This document shows positions 3,645-64,000 of a stretch of DNA of 64,000 nt, one piece after another. Position 1 is the stretch's first letter. The number at the start of each line of letters is the position of its first letter. The stretch covers positions 62,001 to 126,000 of the forward strand of contig JAKBAD010000004.1 in the NCBI GenBank assembly GCA_021809435.1. The letters are read 5' to 3'. The position numbers and the translations under genes are program-made. This stretch comes from Pseudomonadota bacterium (GTDB lineage: Bacteria; Pseudomonadota; Alphaproteobacteria; Acetobacterales; Acetobacteraceae). The notes beneath the pieces are model-generated. The model saw only the letters and a list, made by a program, of their open reading frames with translations. It searched no databases and was not told the DNA's origin.

Positions 3645-4544
3645 ATGGCGCTTGTTCCTTTTGACGATCGTGACGGCTTCATCTGGTGGGATGGCATGAT
3701 GATCCCCTGGCGTGACGCCAAGCTTCACGTATTGAGCCATGGGTTGCACTATGCTTCTGCCGTGTTTGAGGGCGAGCGCTCCTATGGTGGCAATATCTTC
3801 AAGCTCGATGAGCACACCGACCGTCTCATCGAATCGGGCCGCATCCTCGGCTTCGAGATTCCCTTCACCCACGAGCAGATCAATCAGGCCTGCATCGATG
3901 TGTTGAAGGCCAACAACCTGACCGACGCCTATCTCCGCCCGCTGGCGTGGCGCGGCTCCGAGCAGCTGGCCGTGTCGGCGCAACTCACCAAAATCCACCT
4001 GATGGTGGCGTGCTGGGAGTGGCCGAACCTGTTTGGCGCCGACCGCATGAAGGGCGTGCGCCTGGGCATTGCCGATTGGCGCCGCCCGCACCCCAAAACC
4101 GCCCCCACGGCGGCCAAGGCGGCGGGGCTCTACATGATCGGCACCATGAGCAAGCACAAGGCCGAGGAGCAGGGCTTCAACGACGCCCTGATGTACACCT
4201 GGGACGGGTTCGTGGGTGAGGTAACGGGCGCCAACATCTTCTTCGTGATCGATGGCAAGCTCCACACCCCCATCCCGGATTGCTTCCTTGATGGCATCAC
4301 CCGCAAAACCGTCATCGGCCTGGCCAAGGCCCGTGGCATCGAGGTGATCGAGCGTCACATGAAGCCCGAGGAGATGGCCCTCTCGAAGGAAGCCTTCGTC
4401 ACCGGCACGGCCGCCGAGATCACCCCTGTCCGCCAGATCGGCGATCTGCATTTCGAGCCGACCCAGATCACCGAAATGCTGAAATCCGACTATGAGGCGC
4501 TGGTGATGATGTCCCCCGAGGAAGTGAAGCGCCGCGCCGCCTGA
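3645..4544 (+). CDS. ilvE: branched-chain amino acid aminotransferase
   Basis: Fold-type IV PLP aminotransferase of 299 residues. It catalyses the last step of valine, leucine and isoleucine synthesis and the first step of their breakdown, with 2-oxoglutarate as partner. Seen: LSHGLHYASAVFEGER near the N terminus, the PLP-binding Lys158 in TAAKAAGLYMIG, and the cofactor phosphate motif EVTGANIFFV followed by GTAAEITPV. The ATG at 3645 is chosen over TTG at 3639 because GGAG at 3631-3634 sits at a normal distance from it. The gene is divergent from the petP-like regulator and is followed by a hairpin-rich repeat that can stop transcription from both sides. Confidence 0.95.
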   Translation: MALVPFDDRDGFIWWDGMMIPWRDAKLHVLSHGLHYASAVFEGERSYGGNIFKLDEHTDRLIESGRILGFEIPFTHEQINQACIDVLKANNLTDAYLRPLAWRGSEQLAVSAQLTKIHLMVACWEWPNLFGADRMKGVRLGIADWRRPHPKTAPTAAKAAGLYMIGTMSKHKAEEQGFNDALMYTWDGFVGEVTGANIFFVIDGKLHTPIPDCFLDGITRKTVIGLAKARGIEVIERHMKPEEMALSKEAFVTGTAAEITPVRQIGDLHFEPTQITEMLKSDYEALVMMSPEEVKRRAA

Positions 4545-4559
4545 GCGCTCTAAAACATC

Positions 4560-4656
4560 AAAAGTTTTTGGGGGTGTGGGGGCTTTTTGCAAAAAGCCCC
4601 CACGGTCTTTTGGCCCCTTTTTTGTAAAAAAGGGGCCAAGCCCCCAAAAAACTTTT
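4560..4656. repeat. cloverleaf-like intergenic repeat, copy 1
   Basis: Outer arms AAAAGTTTTTGGGGG (4560-4574) and CCCCCAAAAAACTTTT (4641-4656) are complementary and enclose two hairpins: arms GTGGGGGCTTTTT/AAAAAGCCCCCAC at 4576-4603 and arms GGCCCCTTTTTT/AAAAAAGGGGCC at 4612-4637. The same design recurs at 25031-25124 and, in the opposite orientation and altered, at 36244-36352. It fills the gap between convergent ilvE and rdgB and can act as a bidirectional terminator. Confidence 0.85.
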
Positions 4657-4663
4657 AATTCTT

Positions 4664-16740: not shown

Positions 16741-16966
16741 CTTGATGGGGGCTTCGCCCCTTACACCTGCCAGGGGGGCGCTGCCCCCCTTAACCCCCCG
16801 CCAAGGGCCGAGAGGCCCTTGGATCCCATCCGGTTTCTCGGTGGTCCCCCCACAAGGGGGGGACCACCGAGACACCGATTTAGTGAGGTCCAGGGGCTCG
16901 GCCCCTGGCAGAGGTCCAGGAGGCAGCGCCTCCTGGTGGGGGTATGGGGGCGAAGCCCCCATTGGA
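16741..16966. repeat. composite palindromic element, copy 1 (inside agu operon)
   Basis: Seven hairpins in a mirrored order. Left: 16747-16760 (GGGGGCTTCGCCCC), 16772-16790 (arms AGGGGGG/CCCCCCT around CGCTG), 16801-16822 (arms CCAAGGGCC/GGCCCTTGG). Centre: 16831-16877 (20-base arms, loop ACAA, one mismatch). Right: 16890-16908 (CCAGGGGC/GCCCCTGG), 16916-16936 (CCAGGAGGC/GCCTCCTGG), 16944-16962 (ATGGGGGC/GCCCCCAT). The right half is an approximate inverted copy of the left. Related copies lie at 30258-30441 and 54913-55098 and a half copy at 42019-42122. The element ends at the aguA ribosome binding site. Confidence 0.85.
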
Positions 16967-23988: not shown

Positions 23989-25024
23989 GCCCCAGCTCGC
24001 CGCCACCAAACGCATCCTCATCGTCTCCGACGCCTGGACCCCCCAGGTGAACGGGGTGGTGAGAACCTTGCGCACGGTCGCCGATGAGCTGCGCGCCATG
24101 GGTCATGTGGTCGAAATCATCGGCCCCGAGCGCTTCAAAACCATTCCCATGCCGAGCTACCCCGAGATCCGCCTGGCCCTGTTCGCGCGTAAAAAACTCG
24201 GCCGGATCGTCGATGATTTCCAACCCGACGCCCTCCACATCGCCACCGAAGGGCCGCTCGGTCTGGCCGCGCGGGCCTTCGCGGTCAAGCGCCGCATCGC
24301 CTTCACCACCGCCTTCCACACCCGCTTCGCCGAATATCTCAAGGCGCGCACGGGCTTGCCTGAATTCGTCTCTTACGCCTGGCTGCGCTGGTTCCATGCC
24401 GGGGGCGCGGCGGTCATGGTCGCCACCCAATCCTTGCGCGATGAGCTGGTGGCGCGCGGCTTTTCGCATGTGCGGCCCTGGTCGCGCGGCGTCGATCTCA
24501 CCGCCTTCAGCCCGGCGGTAAAAGAACCCTGGGACCTGCCGCGCCCGATCTTTCTCTATGTCGGGCGCGTGGCGGTCGAGAAAAACCTCCGCGCCTTCCT
24601 CAAACTCGACCTGCCAGGCTCGAAGCTGGTGGTTGGCGATGGCCCGCAAAAACACGAGCTGGAAACCGAATTTCCCACCGTGCATTTCGCCGGCGCCCGT
24701 CACGGCGCGGCCCTGGCGGCGGCCTATGCGGGGGCCGATGTGTTCGTGTTCCCCTCCAAAACCGACACGTTCGGCCTCGTGGTGCTCGAAGCCCTGGCAT
24801 CGGGCCTGCCGGTTGCCGCCTATCCGGTCACCGGGCCAAAGGACATATTGGCCGAAGCCACCATGCCCGTCGGCGCGCTCGATGAGGATTTACGCAAGGC
24901 CTGCCTGCAAGCCTTGGAACTCGACCGTTCCGCCTGCCGGCCCTTTGCCGAAACCTATTCCTGGCGCGCCTGCGCCGAGCGCTTCCTCGAAAACCTCGTC
25001 CCCGTACAGGGAAGCGCGCTATGA
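23915..25024 (+). CDS. GT4 glycosyltransferase, Agt-like
   Basis: Retaining glycosyltransferase of up to 369 residues. The catalytic part begins at ILIVSDAWTPQVNGVVRTL; the acceptor-side TAFHTRFAEYLKAR, the linker SRGVDLTAFSP and the nucleotide-sugar EX7E motif in FPSKTDTFGLVVLEALASGLP are clear GT4 features. The match to diglyceride glycosyltransferases (Agt, SqdX-like) together with an overlapping plcP suggests it puts sugar on the diacylglycerol that PlcP releases. The only in-frame ATG/GTG-type start is GTG 23915, which overlaps plcP by 74 bases; a CTG at 23969 with GAGG upstream is an alternative. Confidence 0.8.
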   Translation: MKSPPSSAPSRANSTRPALSPPSSKPQLAATKRILIVSDAWTPQVNGVVRTLRTVADELRAMGHVVEIIGPERFKTIPMPSYPEIRLALFARKKLGRIVDDFQPDALHIATEGPLGLAARAFAVKRRIAFTTAFHTRFAEYLKARTGLPEFVSYAWLRWFHAGGAAVMVATQSLRDELVARGFSHVRPWSRGVDLTAFSPAVKEPWDLPRPIFLYVGRVAVEKNLRAFLKLDLPGSKLVVGDGPQKHELETEFPTVHFAGARHGAALAAAYAGADVFVFPSKTDTFGLVVLEALASGLPVAAYPVTGPKDILAEATMPVGALDEDLRKACLQALELDRSACRPFAETYSWRACAERFLENLVPVQGSAL

Positions 25025-25030
25025 ATAATT

Positions 25031-25124
25031 AAAAGTTTTTGCGGGTGTGGGGGCTTTTTACAAAAAGCCCCCACAGTCTTTCCGCCCCTTTTTTGAAAAA
25101 AAGGGGCGGCCCCAAAAAACTTTT
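25031..25124. repeat. cloverleaf-like intergenic repeat, copy 2
   Basis: Outer arms AAAAGTTTTTGCGGG and CCCCAAAAAACTTTT enclose two hairpins: arms GTGGGGGCTTTTT/AAAAAGCCCCCAC at 25047-25074 and arms CCGCCCCTTTTTT/AAAAAAAGGGGCGG at 25082-25109. Compared with the copy at 4560-4656, the second hairpin has GGCCCC changed to CCGCCCC with the matching change in its other arm. It lies between the convergent GT4 gene and coq9. Confidence 0.85.
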
Positions 25125-29809: not shown

Positions 29810-29830
29810 CCCCGTGCCGCCGGCACGGGG
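29810..29830 (+). terminator. hairpin after fumarase
   Basis: Ten-pair stem with arms CCCCGTGCCG and CGGCACGGGG and a single-base loop, 23 bases past the fumarase stop and 20 before the VOC start. No T-run, so it may be a partial stop or an RNA-stability element. Confidence 0.5.
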
Positions 29831-29849
29831 CCAAGCTCCCCGAGGCGCC

Positions 29850-30245
29850 ATGAAATTCACCGTCGATCGCGTTGACCATCTCGTGCTCGTGTGCCGCGAC
29901 CTGGAAACCACGGCCAGCTGGTATCAGCGCGTGCTGGGCATGGAGCGCGAGGAATATGGCGGCAAAAACCGCACCGCGCTGCGCTTTGGCGGCACCAAGA
30001 TCAATTTGCACGAAGTGGGCTCGGAAGGCCGGCTGCACGCCCAGACCGCCCAGCCGGGCACGCTGGATTTCTGCCTCGTGGTCGCTGTCGGCCCGCAGGA
30101 TGTGATCAACCAGCTCCATGCCTGCGGCGTGCCGGTGGAAGGCGGGCCGATCGGGCGGATTGGCGCGCTGGGCGATATGGTCTCGGTCTATTGCCGCGAT
30201 CCCGACGGCAACCTCATCGAACTCGCCTCCTATCTCGGGGATTAA
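29850..30245 (+). CDS. VOC-family (glyoxalase/bleomycin resistance fold) protein
   Basis: 131-residue single VOC domain: VDRVDHLVLVCRDLETTASWYQRVLGM at the start and VYCRDPDGNLIELASY at the end, giving the metal-site His and Glu of the fold. It resembles small glyoxalase-like and virulence-associated VOC proteins; the reaction cannot be named. ATG 29850 has GAGG five bases upstream. A palindromic repeat follows the stop. Confidence 0.82.
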   Translation: MKFTVDRVDHLVLVCRDLETTASWYQRVLGMEREEYGGKNRTALRFGGTKINLHEVGSEGRLHAQTAQPGTLDFCLVVAVGPQDVINQLHACGVPVEGGPIGRIGALGDMVSVYCRDPDGNLIELASYLGD

Positions 30246-30257
30246 GCTCATGGTTGT

Positions 30258-30441
30258 GGTGCCGCAGGGGGACGCTGTCCCCCTGCACCCCCTGCCAAGG
30301 GCCGAGAGGCCCTTGGATCCCATCCGGCTTATCGCGGGTACCCCCACAAGGGGGGTACCCGCGATAAGCCGATTATTGAGGTCCAGGGGCTCGGCCCCTG
30401 GCTGGGGGGTGAAGGGGGGACAGCGTCCCCCCTTCGGCACC
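30258..30441. repeat. composite palindromic element, copy 2 (upstream of queA)
   Basis: Bounded by GGTGCCG (30258) and CGGCACC (30441), roughly 35-base imperfect terminal inverted repeats. Modules: 30267-30283 (GGGGGAC/GTCCCCC), 30295-30316 (CCAAGGGCC/GGCCCTTGG), central hairpin 30325-30371 (arms of about 20 bases, loop ACAA), 30383-30401 (CCAGGGGC/GCCCCTGG) and 30414-30432 (GGGGGGAC/GTCCCCCC). It lies between the VOC gene and queA and ends five bases before the queA ATG. Confidence 0.87.
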
Positions 30442-36243: not shown

Positions 36244-36352
36244 AAAAGTTTTTTGGGGCGGCGGCGGCGGCGCTCCCCTCGCGGTTACCAGAAAGGGCCA
36301 GAGTCTTGGGGGGCTTTTTATAAAAAGCCCCCCAAACCCCGCAAAAATTTTT
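36244..36352. repeat. cloverleaf-like intergenic repeat, copy 3 (reversed, rearranged)
   Basis: Outer arms AAAAGTTTTTTGGGG (36244-36258) and CCCCGCAAAAATTTTT (36337-36352). One hairpin, arms TTGGGGGGCTTTTT/AAAAAGCCCCCCAA, is at 36306-36335. The position of the second hairpin is filled by a GGC-trinucleotide run and unrelated sequence. The order of parts fits the reverse complement of the copies at 4560 and 25031. Confidence 0.75.
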
Positions 36353-39953: not shown

Positions 39954-41852
<1,899 letters not shown>

Positions 41853-42018: not shown

Positions 42019-42122
42019 CGGCATAAAAAATCCCGCCCCCCAGGGGCGGGATTTTTATGCCGGGTGGGTTCCAAGGGCCTCTCGGCCCTTGGTGGGGTGT
42101 GGGGCAAGGCCCCACGGAAACC
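42019..42122 (-). repeat. half copy of the composite palindromic element, with terminator hairpin
   Basis: Read on the minus strand from the leuA stop: hairpin GTGGGGC/GCCCCAC (42099-42115), then arms CCAAGGGCC/GGCCCTTGG (42071-42092), the shared linker GGAACCCACCC, then a central hairpin at 42019-42062 with arms of about 19 bases that ends in a T-rich run. This matches the left half plus centre of the elements at 16741, 30258 and 54913; the right half is absent. The last hairpin is a strong intrinsic terminator for leuA. Confidence 0.8.
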
Positions 42123-43697
42123 TTACGCCGACAGCGCCTCGGGCACGGAGCGCGTGCGCTTGGTGATGAGTTTGTTGAGCGCGTGGATATAGGCGCGCAC
42201 GGCGGCGACGATGGTGTCGGTATCCGCCCCCTGACCATTGACGGTCTTGCCGTCCTCTTCCAGCCGCACGGTGCATTTGGCCTGGGCGTCGGTGCCCTCG
42301 GTCACGGCGCCGACGGAGAACAGCAGCAGGCTGGCGGTGTGGGGGAAGATGGCGTGGATGGCGTTGAATGCCGCGTCCACGGGGCCATCGCCGCGTTCAT
42401 CGGCGGTTTTGGTCTCGCCGTTCACGCTCAGCTCCAGCAGGGCGCGGGGCTTGTCCTTCGAGCCGGCCCAGACTTCGAGGGAGACGAATTTGATGGTCTC
42501 GTTCGAGCGCATCACCTCGTCATCGACCAAGGCCACGATGTCCTCATCATAGACGATCTTCTTGCGGTCGGCCAAATCCTTGAAGCGCTTGAAGGCGTCG
42601 TTCAAGGCATTGTCGCCGATTTCGGCGTAGCCCAGCGAGGTCAGCTTGTCGCGGAAGGCCGCGCGCCCCGAATGCTTGCCCATGACCAGCGAGGTTTTCT
42701 GCCAGCCCACGCTCTCGGGCGTCATGATCTCGTAGGTGGCGGCGTTTTTCAGCATGCCATCCTGATGGATGCCGGATTCGTGGGCGAAGGCATTGCGCCC
42801 GACGATGGCCTTGTTGGGCTGGACATCGAAGCCGGTGATGGTGGCCAGCAATTTCGAGGTGCGCAGGATGCGCGTAGTCTCGATATTGTGGTGATAGGGG
42901 TTGGCGTCCGGCCGGGTGCGGATGGCCATGACGATTTCCTCGAGCGCGGCATTGCCCGCGCGCTCGCCGATGCCGTTGATGGTGCACTCGATTTGCCGCG
43001 CGCCGCCCTGCGCGGCGGCCAGCGTGTTGGCCACGCCCAGGCCCAGATCGTTGTGGCAATGGGCGGAGAAAATAACACGCTCGGCGCCGGGCACGCGCGC
43101 GCGCACGGTGGAGAAGATGCGCACCATGTCCTCGGGCACGGCGTAGCCCACCGTGTCGGGGATATTGATGGTGGTGGCGCCGGCCTTGATGGCGGCCTCG
43201 ACGCAGCGGCACAGGAAGTCGATATCCGTGCGGGTGCCGTCCTCGGCCGACCATTCAACGTCGTCGGTGAAATTGCGCGCCAATGTGACCGAGCTGGTCA
43301 CGGCCTCCAGCACCGCGTCGGGCTCCATGCGCAGCTTATATTTCATGTGCAGCGGGCTGGTGGAGATGAAGGTGTGGATGCGCTTGCGCTCGGCGCCCTT
43401 GATGGCCTCGCCGGCCTTGGTGATATCGCCCACCGCGGCGCGGGCCAGCCCCGCCACCACCGGCCCCTTGGCGATGGCCGCGATTTGCTGCACGGCCTCG
43501 AAATCGCCCGGCGAGGCGGCGGGGAAGCCAGCCTCGATGACATCGACGCCCAAAGCCGACAGGGCTTCTGCCATGCGCAATTTCTCGTCCAGATTCATCG
43601 AGAAGCCGGGGGATTGCTCGCCGTCGCGCAAGGTGGTGTCGAAGATGATGACGCGCTGATCGTCGATGGTGCCGAAATTCGGGTGGATGATGGACAT
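42123..43697 (-). CDS. leuA: 2-isopropylmalate synthase
   Basis: 524 residues; condenses acetyl-CoA and 2-oxoisovalerate, the first step of leucine synthesis. The HMGL-like TIM barrel has IIFDTTLRDGEQSPGFSMN near residue 18, HCHNDLGLGVANTLAA (metal-binding HxH) and GIGERAGNAALEEIVMA; the C-terminal LeuA regulatory domain binds leucine for feedback inhibition. AGGA lies eight bases before the ATG. A leucine-rich leader peptide and alternative hairpins lie upstream, suggesting attenuation. Confidence 0.97.
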   Translation of the reverse strand: MSIIHPNFGTIDDQRVIIFDTTLRDGEQSPGFSMNLDEKLRMAEALSALGVDVIEAGFPAASPGDFEAVQQIAAIAKGPVVAGLARAAVGDITKAGEAIKGAERKRIHTFISTSPLHMKYKLRMEPDAVLEAVTSSVTLARNFTDDVEWSAEDGTRTDIDFLCRCVEAAIKAGATTINIPDTVGYAVPEDMVRIFSTVRARVPGAERVIFSAHCHNDLGLGVANTLAAAQGGARQIECTINGIGERAGNAALEEIVMAIRTRPDANPYHHNIETTRILRTSKLLATITGFDVQPNKAIVGRNAFAHESGIHQDGMLKNAATYEIMTPESVGWQKTSLVMGKHSGRAAFRDKLTSLGYAEIGDNALNDAFKRFKDLADRKKIVYDEDIVALVDDEVMRSNETIKFVSLEVWAGSKDKPRALLELSVNGETKTADERGDGPVDAAFNAIHAIFPHTASLLLFSVGAVTEGTDAQAKCTVRLEEDGKTVNGQGADTDTIVAAVRAYIHALNKLITKRTRSVPEALSA

Positions 43698-54912: not shown

Positions 54913-55098
54913 ATGGTGCCTGAGGGGGACGCTGTCCCCCTCAACCCCCTGCCAAGGGCCGAGAGGCCCTTGGAACCCACCCGCCATGAAAAAGGGGACC
55001 CACAAGGGGTCCCCTTTTTCATAGCGAATGATTGGGGTCCAGGAGCCCGGCTCCTGGTGGGGGGTCAAGGGGGGCAAAGCCCCCCTTGGGTACTGGCC
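54913..55098. repeat. composite palindromic element, copy 3 (between ispA and FUSC gene)
   Basis: Modules: 54924-54940 (GGGGGAC/GTCCCCC), 54952-54973 (CCAAGGGCC/GGCCCTTGG), central hairpin 54986-55022 (arms ATGAAAAAGGGGACCC and its complement, loop ACAAG-type), 55039-55057 (CCAGGAGC/GCTCCTGG), 55069-55085 (GGGGGGC/GCCCCCC). The central hairpin has A- and T-runs, so it can terminate transcription both ways between the convergent genes. Confidence 0.86.
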
Positions 55099-62010: not shown

Positions 62011-62024
62011 AAGCTCATGGCGGC

Positions 62025-62050
62025 GCCTGATGGCGTGCGATGACATCAGA
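62025..62050 (+). repeat. 26-base repeat flanking the chemoreceptor gene, left copy
   Basis: Inverted with respect to 63360-63385; 25 of 26 bases agree. Contains most of the 17-base motif also found at 49977. The pair encloses the chemoreceptor gene (1361 bases end to end). Confidence 0.75.
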
Positions 62051-62068
62051 TCTAAAACACATAATGGC

Positions 62069-62091
62069 GCATTCAGCTAAACGCTGAATGC
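62069..62091 (-). terminator. hairpin at the chemoreceptor 3' end
   Basis: Perfect nine-pair stem GCATTCAGC/GCTGAATGC with a five-base loop, overlapping the stop codon. On the minus strand it is followed, after a spacer, by TGTTTTAG; terminator strength is uncertain. Confidence 0.45.
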
Positions 62092-63260
62092 TCCAGCGCC
62101 GTGGTCAGATTAAAGCGCAGCAGCAGCCCCCAGGGCTGGCTGGGCGCGCCCAGCGCCAGCGGGTGCAGCACCGCCACCTCGCCATCGGCGGCGAGGGCCT
62201 GAAACGCCTCGCCCGCGCCCAGCGCGCGCAGCAGGGCGGGGGGCAGGTCGCTGGCCGGCTGGCCGATGCGCGCGGGCTCCTCATGGGTGGCATAGCGCCC
62301 GCCATGCGAGAGCAGGCATAAGCTCCCCGTGCCCATGGGCTTGGCCGCCGCCAGCTGGGCCTGTAACTGCGCCAGCCCGAAATCAGCCCCCAGCACGCCC
62401 GCGAACCGGCCCTTGAACAGCACCGGCAGCATGAACGAGGTGATTTTCATCATCACCCCGCCCACCTCGTAATCATAGGGTTCGATCATCACCGCGCTTC
62501 CGGCCCGGCGCGGCAGCTCATAATACTCATTCTGCCCCGGCACATCGTAGCCCACCAGTGGCTCAAGCGAGAGCCGCCCCGAGCCGCGATGCCAGTATGA
62601 CAGAAACCGCCCCGTGGCATCGCTGCCCTCCTGGTGGGCATACTCGGCGTCGCGCCCGTCAAACGCGCCCGGCTCCATGCCGCAGGAGAGCGCCAGCAGC
62701 CCCGGATTACCCTCCAGATAGCGCGCCATGATGGCGTTGAACCGCGCGCGCGTCAGCGCATCGGGCTGGGCCTTGAGCGCCTGGAGGGTAAATTCCAGCC
62801 CGTTCAGCGTGGTGCCGATCTGGTTGAACCAGGCCAGCACGCGCGCGGCCTCCAGCCCGGTCAGCCGCACGGCGCGCTGCATCACGCCGTCGCTTTCCTC
62901 GCTTTCCACCCCTTGCACGGCGCGCTTAATCTCGGCCTTGATCTGGGGCAGCATGTCATTGATGGTCGAGGTGGCGGCCGATGTCCGTTCCGCCAGATTG
63001 CGCACCTCCGAGGCCACCACCGAAAATCCCCGCCCCGCATCGCCCGCGCGCGCGGCCTCGATGGTGGCGTTGAACGACAGCAGCTTGGTGTGGCGCGCCA
63101 CGCCGTTGATCATCTCGGCAATCTCGGCGATCTCCTGAAAGCGCCGCTCCAGCCCCGTGACCATGGATTTCACGCGCGCCATGGTGCCCCCCGCGCCGGC
63201 CGTCTCAGTGCCGGGCGCGCCGGCTCGGGCGCGGGTGAGCTCAGCCAATCCCTGATACAA
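62073..63260 (-). CDS. soluble chemoreceptor with C-terminal Cache-like domain
   Basis: 395 residues without membrane helices. The methyl-accepting signalling hairpin comes first: tip region INGVARHTKLLSFNATIEAARAGDAGRGFSVVASEVRNLAERTSAAT (residues about 50-98, CheA/CheW contact). A C-terminal region of about 230 residues contains YWHRGSGRLSLEPLVGYDVPGQNEYYELPRR and MMKITSFMLPVLFKGRFAGVLGADFGL, the pattern of a dCache_1 ligand-binding domain, normally extracytoplasmic. TTG 63260 is preceded by GAGGAG at good spacing. Signal unknown. Confidence 0.85.
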   Translation of the reverse strand: MYQGLAELTRARAGAPGTETAGAGGTMARVKSMVTGLERRFQEIAEIAEMINGVARHTKLLSFNATIEAARAGDAGRGFSVVASEVRNLAERTSAATSTINDMLPQIKAEIKRAVQGVESEESDGVMQRAVRLTGLEAARVLAWFNQIGTTLNGLEFTLQALKAQPDALTRARFNAIMARYLEGNPGLLALSCGMEPGAFDGRDAEYAHQEGSDATGRFLSYWHRGSGRLSLEPLVGYDVPGQNEYYELPRRAGSAVMIEPYDYEVGGVMMKITSFMLPVLFKGRFAGVLGADFGLAQLQAQLAAAKPMGTGSLCLLSHGGRYATHEEPARIGQPASDLPPALLRALGAGEAFQALAADGEVAVLHPLALGAPSQPWGLLLRFNLTTALEHSAFS

Positions 63261-63359: not shown

Positions 63360-63385
63360 TCTGAGGTCATCGCACGCCATCAGGC
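63360..63385 (-). repeat. 26-base repeat flanking the chemoreceptor gene, right copy
   Basis: Inverted copy of 62025-62050 with one difference. Ends directly at the 3' end of the aldo/keto reductase gene. Confidence 0.75.
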
Positions 63386-64000
63386 GGCGGGCGCTTCCTC
63401 GGTGTCAATTTCGGCTTGTGTCGCCGCCGGGTAGCGCGGCCCCGCCACCTTGCGCGGCGCCACAATCTCTTCCAGCCGCGCCAGCTGCGCGGGCGAGAGC
63501 GCCACCTCCGCCATATCCTCGCGCAAATGCGCCACGCTGGTGGTGCCGGGAATGGCATGCACGCCCGGCCCCCTGGCCAGCACCCAGGCCAGCGCGGCCT
63601 GCGCCGGACTCACCCCGATCTCAGCCGCATAAGCCTCGAACTCGGCCAGAATCGTGAGATTTTGGGCGAAATTCTCGCCTTGAAAGCGCGGCATGCCGGC
63701 GCGTATATCGCCGGGCGCGAACCGCGTATCGCGCACCCCGCCGGCCAAAAACCCGCGCGCCACCGGCGAGAAGGCCACCAGCGCCACGCCCAGCTCGTCG
63801 CAAGCCGCCAGCAGCCCATATTCGGGGTTGCGGCTCCAGAGCGAATATTCATTCTGCACGGCGGCAATGGGGTGAACCGCATGCGCCGTGCGCAAGGTCG
63901 CGGCCGAAACCTCCGAGAGCCCGATGGCGCCGATCTTGCCCTGGCGCACCAGCTCACCCAGCGCGCCCACGCTCTCCTCAATCGCCACGGTGCGGTCCAA
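63380..64000 (-). CDS. aldo/keto reductase, C-terminal part (cut by window end)
   Basis: 206 C-terminal residues of an aldo/keto reductase of about 330; the start lies beyond base 64000, so the first codon here is internal. Seen: IEESVGALGELVRQGKIGAIGLSEVSAATL, AVQNEYSLWSRNPE, LVAFSPVARGFLAGG and the NADPH-binding AIPGTTSVAHLREDM. The catalytic Asp, Tyr and Lys are in the missing part. Reduces aldehydes or ketones; the substrate is unknown. The YSLWSRNPE form is that of the yeast/plant-like AKR13 group. Confidence 0.9.
   Translation of the reverse strand: MDRTVAIEESVGALGELVRQGKIGAIGLSEVSAATLRTAHAVHPIAAVQNEYSLWSRNPEYGLLAACDELGVALVAFSPVARGFLAGGVRDTRFAPGDIRAGMPRFQGENFAQNLTILAEFEAYAAEIGVSPAQAALAWVLARGPGVHAIPGTTSVAHLREDMAEVALSPAQLARLEEIVAPRKVAGPRYPAATQAEIDTEEAPAA

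What the first reader, a model, noticed from the sequence alone, without database searches (positions are those of the whole stretch)
30258..30441. Composite intergenic element made of nested palindromes with mirrored halves
Seen: about 35-base terminal inverted repeats (GGTGCCG... and ...CGGCACC) each contain their own palindromes; order is module B, module C, central hairpin, C', B', and the right half is roughly the reverse complement of the left. The same plan is found at 16741-16966 (with an extra outer module A/A') and 54913-55098. Each module pairs with itself and with its mirror partner, so two folds are possible: a chain of small hairpins or one long rod. No ORF lies inside. This looks like a non-autonomous mobile or structured-DNA/RNA family. 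I cannot name it from known REP, BIME or MITE families.
Basis: seen in the sequence. Interest (0 to 1): 0.8.

Follow-up and report, generated by a model that had tools for sequence, protein, structure and literature searches.

The report
Mirrored hairpin cassette between bacterial genes
Between genes of an acid-loving bacterium (most likely Acidocella) sit copies of a small DNA cassette made of five hairpins in mirror order, part of a repeat family common in the acetic acid bacteria that has come and gone at gene junctions and whose middle hairpin looks like a transcription stop sign mainly where two genes face each other.

Summary
Window 30258-30441 is a mirrored array of five hairpins, B-C-T-C'-B'; the same plan is at 16745-16962 and 54915-55094, with a half copy at 42019-42117. 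It folds about 15 sd better than shuffles. A covariance model of the B-C module matches 29 of 38 genomes of the genus and 96 of 150 of the family (Acetobacteraceae), but only 2 genomes besides the window's own in a class-wide sample of 142. B and C as local hairpins show strong compensatory change; the long rod is the calculated energy minimum, but C-C' pairing is not copy-specific. The outer arms pair with their own partner and vary between loci. Copies are gained and lost at orthologous junctions, and cores flip or change. In the genus 0 of 46 copies lie between divergent genes, and the central hairpin carries a T tract in 23 of 26 convergent and 5 of 20 tandem settings (p=1.5e-5). The RAYT domain (REP transposase) was not found in the window's genome. 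Best reading: a BIME/REPIN-like family acting as RNA 3'-end cassettes, moved by an unknown agent. New variant of a known kind; function is inferred, not shown.

The parts
30258..30441 (.). Full element of the finding: outer stem, B, L1, C, L2, T, L2', C', L1', B', outer stem; between glyoxalase (+) and queA (+)
   Evidence: sequence; parse; folds
30264..30286 (+). Module B, self-palindromic hairpin
   Evidence: pairs vary in a compensatory way across 46 half elements
30295..30316 (+). Module C, hairpin CCAAGGGCC-GAGA-GGCCCTTGG
30325..30371 (.). Central hairpin T, no T tract (tandem setting)
30383..30401 (-). Module C', hairpin CCAGGGGCTCGGCCCCTGG
30411..30435 (-). Module B', hairpin
16745..16962 (.). 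Second full element with extra outer hairpins A (about 16745-16760) and A' (16944-16962); inner array 16772-16936; between CN hydrolase and peptidyl-arginine deiminase genes (both -); absent at the orthologous junction of relative G020
54915..55094 (.). Third full element; inner array 54921-55088; T at 54986-55022 has AAAAAGGGG..CCCCTTTTT; between convergent genes (polyprenyl synthetase + and FUSC -)
42019..42117 (-). Half element: T with T tract (42019-42062), C (42071-42092) and one outer hairpin; between leuA-like (42123-43697 -) and HSP70 (39954-41852 -)
29814..30245 (+). Glyoxalase-family gene upstream
   Evidence: Pfam PF00903
30447..31472 (+). queA (PF02547) downstream; 5 bases lie between the outer stem and the start codon

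Best explanation
This is one copy of an Acetobacteraceae family of intergenic mosaic elements (BIME/REPIN-like in plan) that works at the RNA level as a 3'-end cassette. Transcribed from either side it gives B, C, T, C', B' as successive hairpins (inferred from covariation and from local pairing during transcription) inside an outer stem that varies by locus. Between convergent genes the T hairpin has an A run and a T run and would act as a bidirectional intrinsic terminator (inferred from the context association). Between tandem genes, where the downstream start was called 11-27 bases from the array in 9 of 12 G000/G020 copies, T mostly lacks the tract and the array would act as an intercistronic barrier that protects or uncouples the upstream mRNA without stopping transcription (inferred). 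Copies are gained, lost, flipped and re-cored at junctions (shown by comparison of genomes). The agent of movement is unknown and is probably not a RAYT in this genome.
For: T-tract rule (A run and T run of at least 4 in T): convergent 23 of 26, tandem 5 of 20, Fisher p=1.5e-5; genomes other than those in which I noticed it 17/20 vs 3/10, p=0.005; G000+G020 (the discovery set) 6/6 vs 2/10, p=0.007; after collapsing similar T sequences 12/14 vs 5/15, p=0.008. None of the 46 was called between divergent genes; background in G000+G020 gaps of 100-600 bases 29%. Gene calls checked: 28 of 30 flanking proteins submitted have a Pfam domain on the called strand. Self-hairpins covary: 15 of 19 pairs with double changes, 97.1% of cells paired, covariation 0.325 vs 0.142, each in 0 of 500 shuffles. 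Outer arms pair with their own partner, 12.6 vs 5.8 with others, 0 of 5000 permutations. Orthologous G000/G020 sites keep an element while core orientation or T changes. Distribution in genus and family.
Against: No expression data. The simple terminator scan reported none at the two elements tested; it seems to take the longest stem, which would swallow the T run. The calculated RNA minimum is better than the fold with all four side hairpins enforced by 11.3 kcal/mol on average, 0.5 to 33.6 over 24 folds. One covariation measure, further pair types, is not above shuffles (227 of 500). Three convergent copies lack the tract and five tandem copies have it. In other genera none of eight copies with a T read by eye has the tract (L351, L355, L359, L361-L364, L369), two called convergent among them (L359, L363), and the called contexts were 12 tandem, 3 convergent, 2 divergent of 17, so the rule is shown only for this genus. 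Copies and genomes are not fully independent.
Confidence: 0.5

Rival explanations
1. A selfish non-autonomous palindromic element, moved as single-stranded or hairpin DNA by a transposase in trans, with no host function; it survives only where it does little harm, that is at gene 3' ends.
For: Scattered presence with empty junctions in close relatives; 149 and 127 module hits in G012 and G014 against none in 9 of 38 genomes of the genus, several of those incomplete; nearly identical copies in G012/G014 (by eye); absence from divergent regions is also known for REPs (recalled).
Against: Does not explain the T-tract/orientation association or the copy-specific pairing of the outer arms; no Y1/RAYT domain found in G000 or in the copy-rich G012, G014, G104; no target-site duplication seen.
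Confidence: 0.27
2. A DNA-level element: the palindromes bind a nucleoid protein or topoisomerase, or extrude as cruciforms, to absorb supercoiling at gene ends (as proposed for BIMEs; recalled).
For: Both strands fold into long stable structures; convergent genes are over-represented (26 of 46, against about 15-16% of gaps of 100-600 bases in G000 and G020); DNA fold z -14.7.
Against: Does not predict T tracts that depend on gene orientation; loops and linkers are asymmetric between B and B', C and C'.
Confidence: 0.1
3. Growth in place: small hairpins at junctions arise by template switching and larger palindromes are then inserted into their loops, so the element is a pile of nested palindromes and not one mobile unit.
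For: At the queA junction 30 genomes show every stage (labels by eye): 15 little or nothing, 6 a short palindrome (in five its stem holds an inverted copy of the queA start), 2 palindrome plus one hairpin, 5 full or decayed element, 1 remnant, 1 other hairpin family. C' loops carry 28-nt or 57-nt inserts, partly self-paired, at several loci.
Against: The B-C module and its order recur in other genera, which needs copying between loci or common descent; stages could also be decay (G012 keeps what looks like a right-end remnant).
Confidence: 0.13

Closest known systems
BIMEs (bacterial interspersed mosaic elements); abstract and outline of PMC2817692 seen, further details recalled
   Same: Intergenic mosaics of palindromes in alternating orientation; proposed roles in transcription termination and chromosome organisation (abstract).
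   Different: Five hairpins in a fixed mirrored order around a variable central hairpin; two unlike side hairpins C and C'; outer stem that varies by locus; no RAYT domain found in the window's genome.
REPINs (REP doublets forming hairpins); passages of PMC3116915 seen
   Same: Inverted doublet with a spacer hairpin and compensatory changes; two possible folds, long hairpin or clover, already described.
   Different: Doublet of two-hairpin modules (B-C), not of single REPs; no Y1 domain found in 24 of the 29 genus genomes that carry the module.
GTAG/CGTC-tagged REP dimers, some inserted inside longer palindromes; passages of PMC3733652 seen
   Same: HH/TT dimers that fold separately or as one large stem-loop, with structured spacers; some lie inside a palindrome.
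   Different: B and C modules carry no GTAG or CGTC tag at their ends in the parsed copies (by eye); the surrounding palindrome varies by locus. The 28-nt insert in C' loops reads CGTC..GACG with its next bases and could be a CGTC-type repeat (not tested).
Bidirectional intrinsic terminators between convergent genes (general knowledge)
   Same: GC-rich stem flanked by A run and T run, in 23 of 26 convergent copies.
   Different: Embedded in a repeated five-hairpin cassette; tract absent in 15 of 20 tandem copies.

Membership tests
REP/BIME of the RAYT-linked kind | Short GC-rich intergenic palindromes in many copies | tested here: met
   26 module hits in G000, 127 and 149 in G014 and G012 (about 150 candidates scored per genome); intergenic
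REP/BIME of the RAYT-linked kind | Inverted (mirrored) doublets | tested here: met
   34 parsed elements; + and - hits in pairs
REP/BIME of the RAYT-linked kind | GTAG or CGTC tag at one end of the palindrome | tested here: not met
   module listing, by eye, for B and C
REP/BIME of the RAYT-linked kind | Cognate RAYT (Y1_Tnp, PF01797) in carrier genomes | tested here: not met
   5 of 38 genus genomes have the domain, all five carriers; 24 of 29 carriers do not, among them G000, G012, G014, G104, G006; controls rang in 5 of 14
MITE | Conserved terminal inverted repeats shared by copies | tested here: not met
   in the window's genome and G020 the outer arms pair with their own partner far better than with others; short GTGCC/GGCAC stretches recur, and copies of the G012/G014 kind share part of the arm (GGAAAAGG/CCTTTTCC, by eye)
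MITE | Target-site duplication | tested here: inconclusive
   none consistent by eye at junctions with empty relatives; a CATG on both sides at queA may be chance
MITE | Transposase with matching ends | not tested
   only PF01797 was searched
Intrinsic terminator | GC-rich hairpin followed by T run | tested here: inconclusive
   A/T runs of 4 or more in T: 23 of 26 convergent, 5 of 20 tandem copies; consensus scan found none at two elements
Intrinsic terminator | RNA 3' ends at the T run in vivo | not testable with these tools
   no expression data held
Any Rfam RNA family | Match at or above the gathering score | tested here: not met
   only three tRNAs in the window

The most novel reading that the evidence does not exclude
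A mobile regulatory cassette whose interchangeable central hairpin is tuned to gene orientation: the family spreads through gene junctions of the Acetobacteraceae, and by swapping or flipping its core (and taking palindromes into its hairpin loops) a site receives a two-way terminator where genes converge and a read-through barrier where they run in tandem. Mobile palindromes would then supply the 3' ends of many genes in these genomes.
Probability: 0.25. Interest if true: 0.75.

Novelty: new variant of a known kind. Interest (0 to 1): 0.52.

Why it matters
Whether intergenic palindromes such as BIMEs and REPINs are selfish or serve as RNA 3' ends is an open question (recalled). Here a family with no RAYT domain found in the window's genome has a core hairpin that differs with gene orientation, which can be tested by mapping RNA ends in a cultivable strain. 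If true, turnover of mobile palindromes rewrites transcription termination and operon uncoupling between close species. It also gives a covariance model for a repeat common in one bacterial family and without a match in Rfam.

Tried and rejected
RAYT-driven REP family: rejected for G000 because PF01797 was not found there nor in the most copy-rich genomes. Classical MITE: not supported, for lack of clearly shared ends. Known RNA family: none at gathering score. Rod (B with B', C with C') as the selected fold: energetically best, but among the 12 G000/G020 copies B:B' and C:C' complementarity is no better within a copy than between copies (P 0.94 and 0.96); over all 34 copies B:B' is better within copies (P 0.0008) and C:C' is not (P 0.67); the former may reflect species differences. 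Linker pairs L1:L1' and L2:L2' are weakly copy-specific over 34 copies (P 0.0014, 0.010), not within G000+G020 (0.998, 0.17). A rearrangement at the G020 glyoxalase/BipA junction cannot be told from a MAG assembly join at the repeat. Literature: in 8 searches (listings only) I saw no title or abstract on such an element in Acidocella or Acetobacteraceae; three papers were opened; most subscription papers are not held.

Rows dropped: of 61 parsed T hairpins 10 had no gene call on one side (edge) and 5 were judged non-family hairpins after viewing them; a sixth first dropped (L328) was restored. With the five put back the tract is in 23 of 28 convergent and 5 of 23 tandem. The parser also misses some true copies (for example L017, L048, L050, seen); by eye these three fit the rule, but they are not in the count. 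One covariation measure (further pair types) was no better than shuffles.

Full report
What is there. Window 30258-30441 fills most of the gap between a glyoxalase gene (ends 30245) and queA (starts 30447), both on the + strand. It consists of an outer stem, hairpin B, a linker, hairpin C, a linker, a long central hairpin T, and then C' and B' in mirror order. RNA and DNA folds are about 15 standard deviations better than shuffles. The copies at 16745-16962 and 54915-55094 have the same plan, and a half copy lies at 42019-42117. The window is part of a 2.65 Mb, 12-contig genome.

Distribution. BLAST with the copy gives 22 matches in the own genome. A covariance model of the B-C module built from 46 half elements gives 26 hits there, hits at E 0.01 in 29 of 38 genomes of the genus (149 and 127 in G012 and G014; about 150 candidates scored per genome, so counts may be low), hits at E 0.001 in 96 of 150 genomes of the family (67 of 102 genera; 38 candidates scored per genome), and in a sample of 142 genomes of the class only in G000 and two others, one hit each. 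Of 20 loci read in other genera several are full mirrored arrays (for example L351, L355, L361, L364), others are halves or an array without T (L358).

Which fold is kept. On the half-element alignment B and C as local hairpins have 97.1% of cells paired, 15 of 19 pairs with changes on both sides, and covariation 0.325 against 0.142 shuffled, each in 0 of 500 shuffles; the number of further pair types (26) is no higher than in shuffles (25.2); sliding the partners lowers all measures. Cross pairing of B with B' and C with C' is not copy-specific among the 12 G000/G020 copies, although B:B' is over all 34. The outermost 28 bases on each side pair with their own partner (12.6) far better than with others (5.8), 0 of 5000 permutations as good, over 34 and also over 12 copies (11.2 vs 6.0). 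Short stretches recur (GTGCC/GGCAC next to B or B' in 5 of 12 G000/G020 copies; GGAAAAGG in copies of the G012/G014 kind; by eye). So evolution keeps local hairpins and a paired outer stem that varies by locus. The calculated RNA minimum is nevertheless better than the fold with all four side hairpins enforced, by 11.3 kcal/mol on average (24 folds, range 0.5-33.6). Local hairpins form first during transcription (general knowledge), so both folds remain possible.

Turnover at orthologous junctions. G020 is 81-92% identical to G000 over the orthologous flanks. Of nine G000 sites whose junction can be read, at least in part, in G020, one (window 16745-16962) is empty there, four keep an element with the core in the opposite orientation (L003, L004, L008, L010; in three of them with an unlike T), and four keep the orientation (L001 on the queA side, L002, L006, L017) (read by eye). 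At the CN-hydrolase/PAD junction 25 genomes were printed: full elements in G000 and G014, a partial one in G101; G018 does not reach the junction and G004 has other sequence there; on a tree of 24 genes the two full ones need two changes, with G020 and G012 as their nearest rows without an element. At the queA junction 30 genomes show little or nothing (15), a short palindrome (6), a palindrome plus one hairpin (2), a full or decayed element (5), a remnant (1), or another hairpin family (1), labelled by eye; full elements need four changes on the queA tree. No constant target-site duplication was seen.

Context. A simple codon-based gene finder was trained on G000 and G020. It was checked on every third of the 46 elements (16): of 32 flanking genes 30 were sent to Pfam and 28 have a domain on the called strand; the two failures are both at the C6:595227 copy, whose real neighbours by eye are on the minus strand, still tandem. 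First count in G000+G020: 12 tandem, 9 convergent, 0 divergent of 21, one more at a contig edge. In the larger set of 46 elements from the genus: 26 convergent, 20 tandem, 0 divergent, against 29% divergent among gaps of 100-600 bases in G000 and G020. In one search the array lies 2-41 bases from the called neighbours, apart from the miscalled C6 copy, a 174-base distance at 16770 (gene start called short: the Pfam-supported frame reaches 16730) and 199 bases at 42052; in 9 of 12 tandem copies the downstream start is 11-27 bases away.

The T-tract rule. I noticed it by eye in G000/G020, wrote it down and then counted with a threshold of 4 fixed beforehand. Convergent 23 of 26, tandem 5 of 20, p=1.5e-5; thresholds 3 and 5 give p=0.003 and 0.0003; genomes other than G000/G020 17 of 20 against 3 of 10, p=0.005; collapsed by similar T 12 of 14 against 5 of 15, p=0.008. 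Ten rows without a gene on one side and five judged non-family were left out. One tandem exception, the window half copy at 42019-42117 between leuA-like and HSP70 genes, leaves 166 bases between T and the HSP70 start, room for a promoter. Another, L244, lies between a pseudouridine synthase and a Cons_hypoth95 (RsmD-like) gene, by eye the same junction at which G000 has a copy without a tract (L004). In other genera none of eight copies with a T read by eye has the tract, and two of 17 copies were called divergent; one of these calls (L364) looks wrong by eye (a SecB-like end, recalled), so the rule is claimed for this genus only.

Mobility. The RAYT domain PF01797 was found in 5 of 38 genomes of the genus and not in G000 nor in the most copy-rich genomes. 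Other mobilisers were not searched. C' loops carry inserts: a 28-nt unit at several loci (L025, L189, L191, L256, L284, L287) and a 57-nt unit at two loci of G020 (L050, L052), against none in about 112 C hairpins of the CCAAGGGCC form (224 matches over both strands; loci may overlap, so counts are rough).

Conclusion. What is shown: a structured repeat common in the family, conserved local hairpins, a paired outer stem that varies by locus, gain and loss, core flips, avoidance of divergent gaps and a T-tract/orientation association within the genus. What is inferred: transcription-level function and the moving agent. It works like a BIME/REPIN mosaic and, in part, like a two-way terminator; it is not filed as a RAYT-linked REP family or a MITE because tested defining features were not met.

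Noticed in passing
window 4540-4663, 25016-25107, 36302-36350: A second family of nested palindromes with AT-rich hairpins (outer AAAAGTTTTTTGGGGG-like arms with inner GGGGGCTTTTTNCAAAAAGCCCCC); the queA junction of G004 carries a related-looking array.
   Followed up: no
L025, L189, L191, L256, L284, L287: A 28-nt mini-palindrome (GTCACGCC..GCACGAC) inserted in the loop of C', and a similar unit in B arms; possibly a CGTC-type repeat of its own.
   Followed up: partly
L050 and L052 (G020), L363 (another genus): 57-nt homologous inserts in C' loops at two G020 loci, and a longer insert in a C' loop of another genus.
   Followed up: partly
queA junctions of G014, G022, G008, G010, G002 (L329, L323-L325, L327): A short hairpin whose stem contains an inverted copy of the queA start (in G014 ATAAATTCATGG..CCATGAATTTAT); it could couple queA translation to the upstream gene.
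   Followed up: no
window 62021-62050 and 63360-63389: A 30-nt inverted repeat, 93% complementary, flanks a gene with methyl-accepting chemotaxis protein domains (62073-63260 -); perhaps an invertible segment.
   Followed up: partly
L012 (G000 C6:128650-128846): One convergent copy lies at the 3' end of a gapR-like gene, whose protein binds overtwisted DNA near 3' ends (function recalled; Pfam).
   Followed up: no
G020 C14:96303-96540 and C22:1: The G020 MAG joins the L001 and L009 flanks through an element; this is either a rearrangement between copies or a repeat-induced assembly join.
   Followed up: partly
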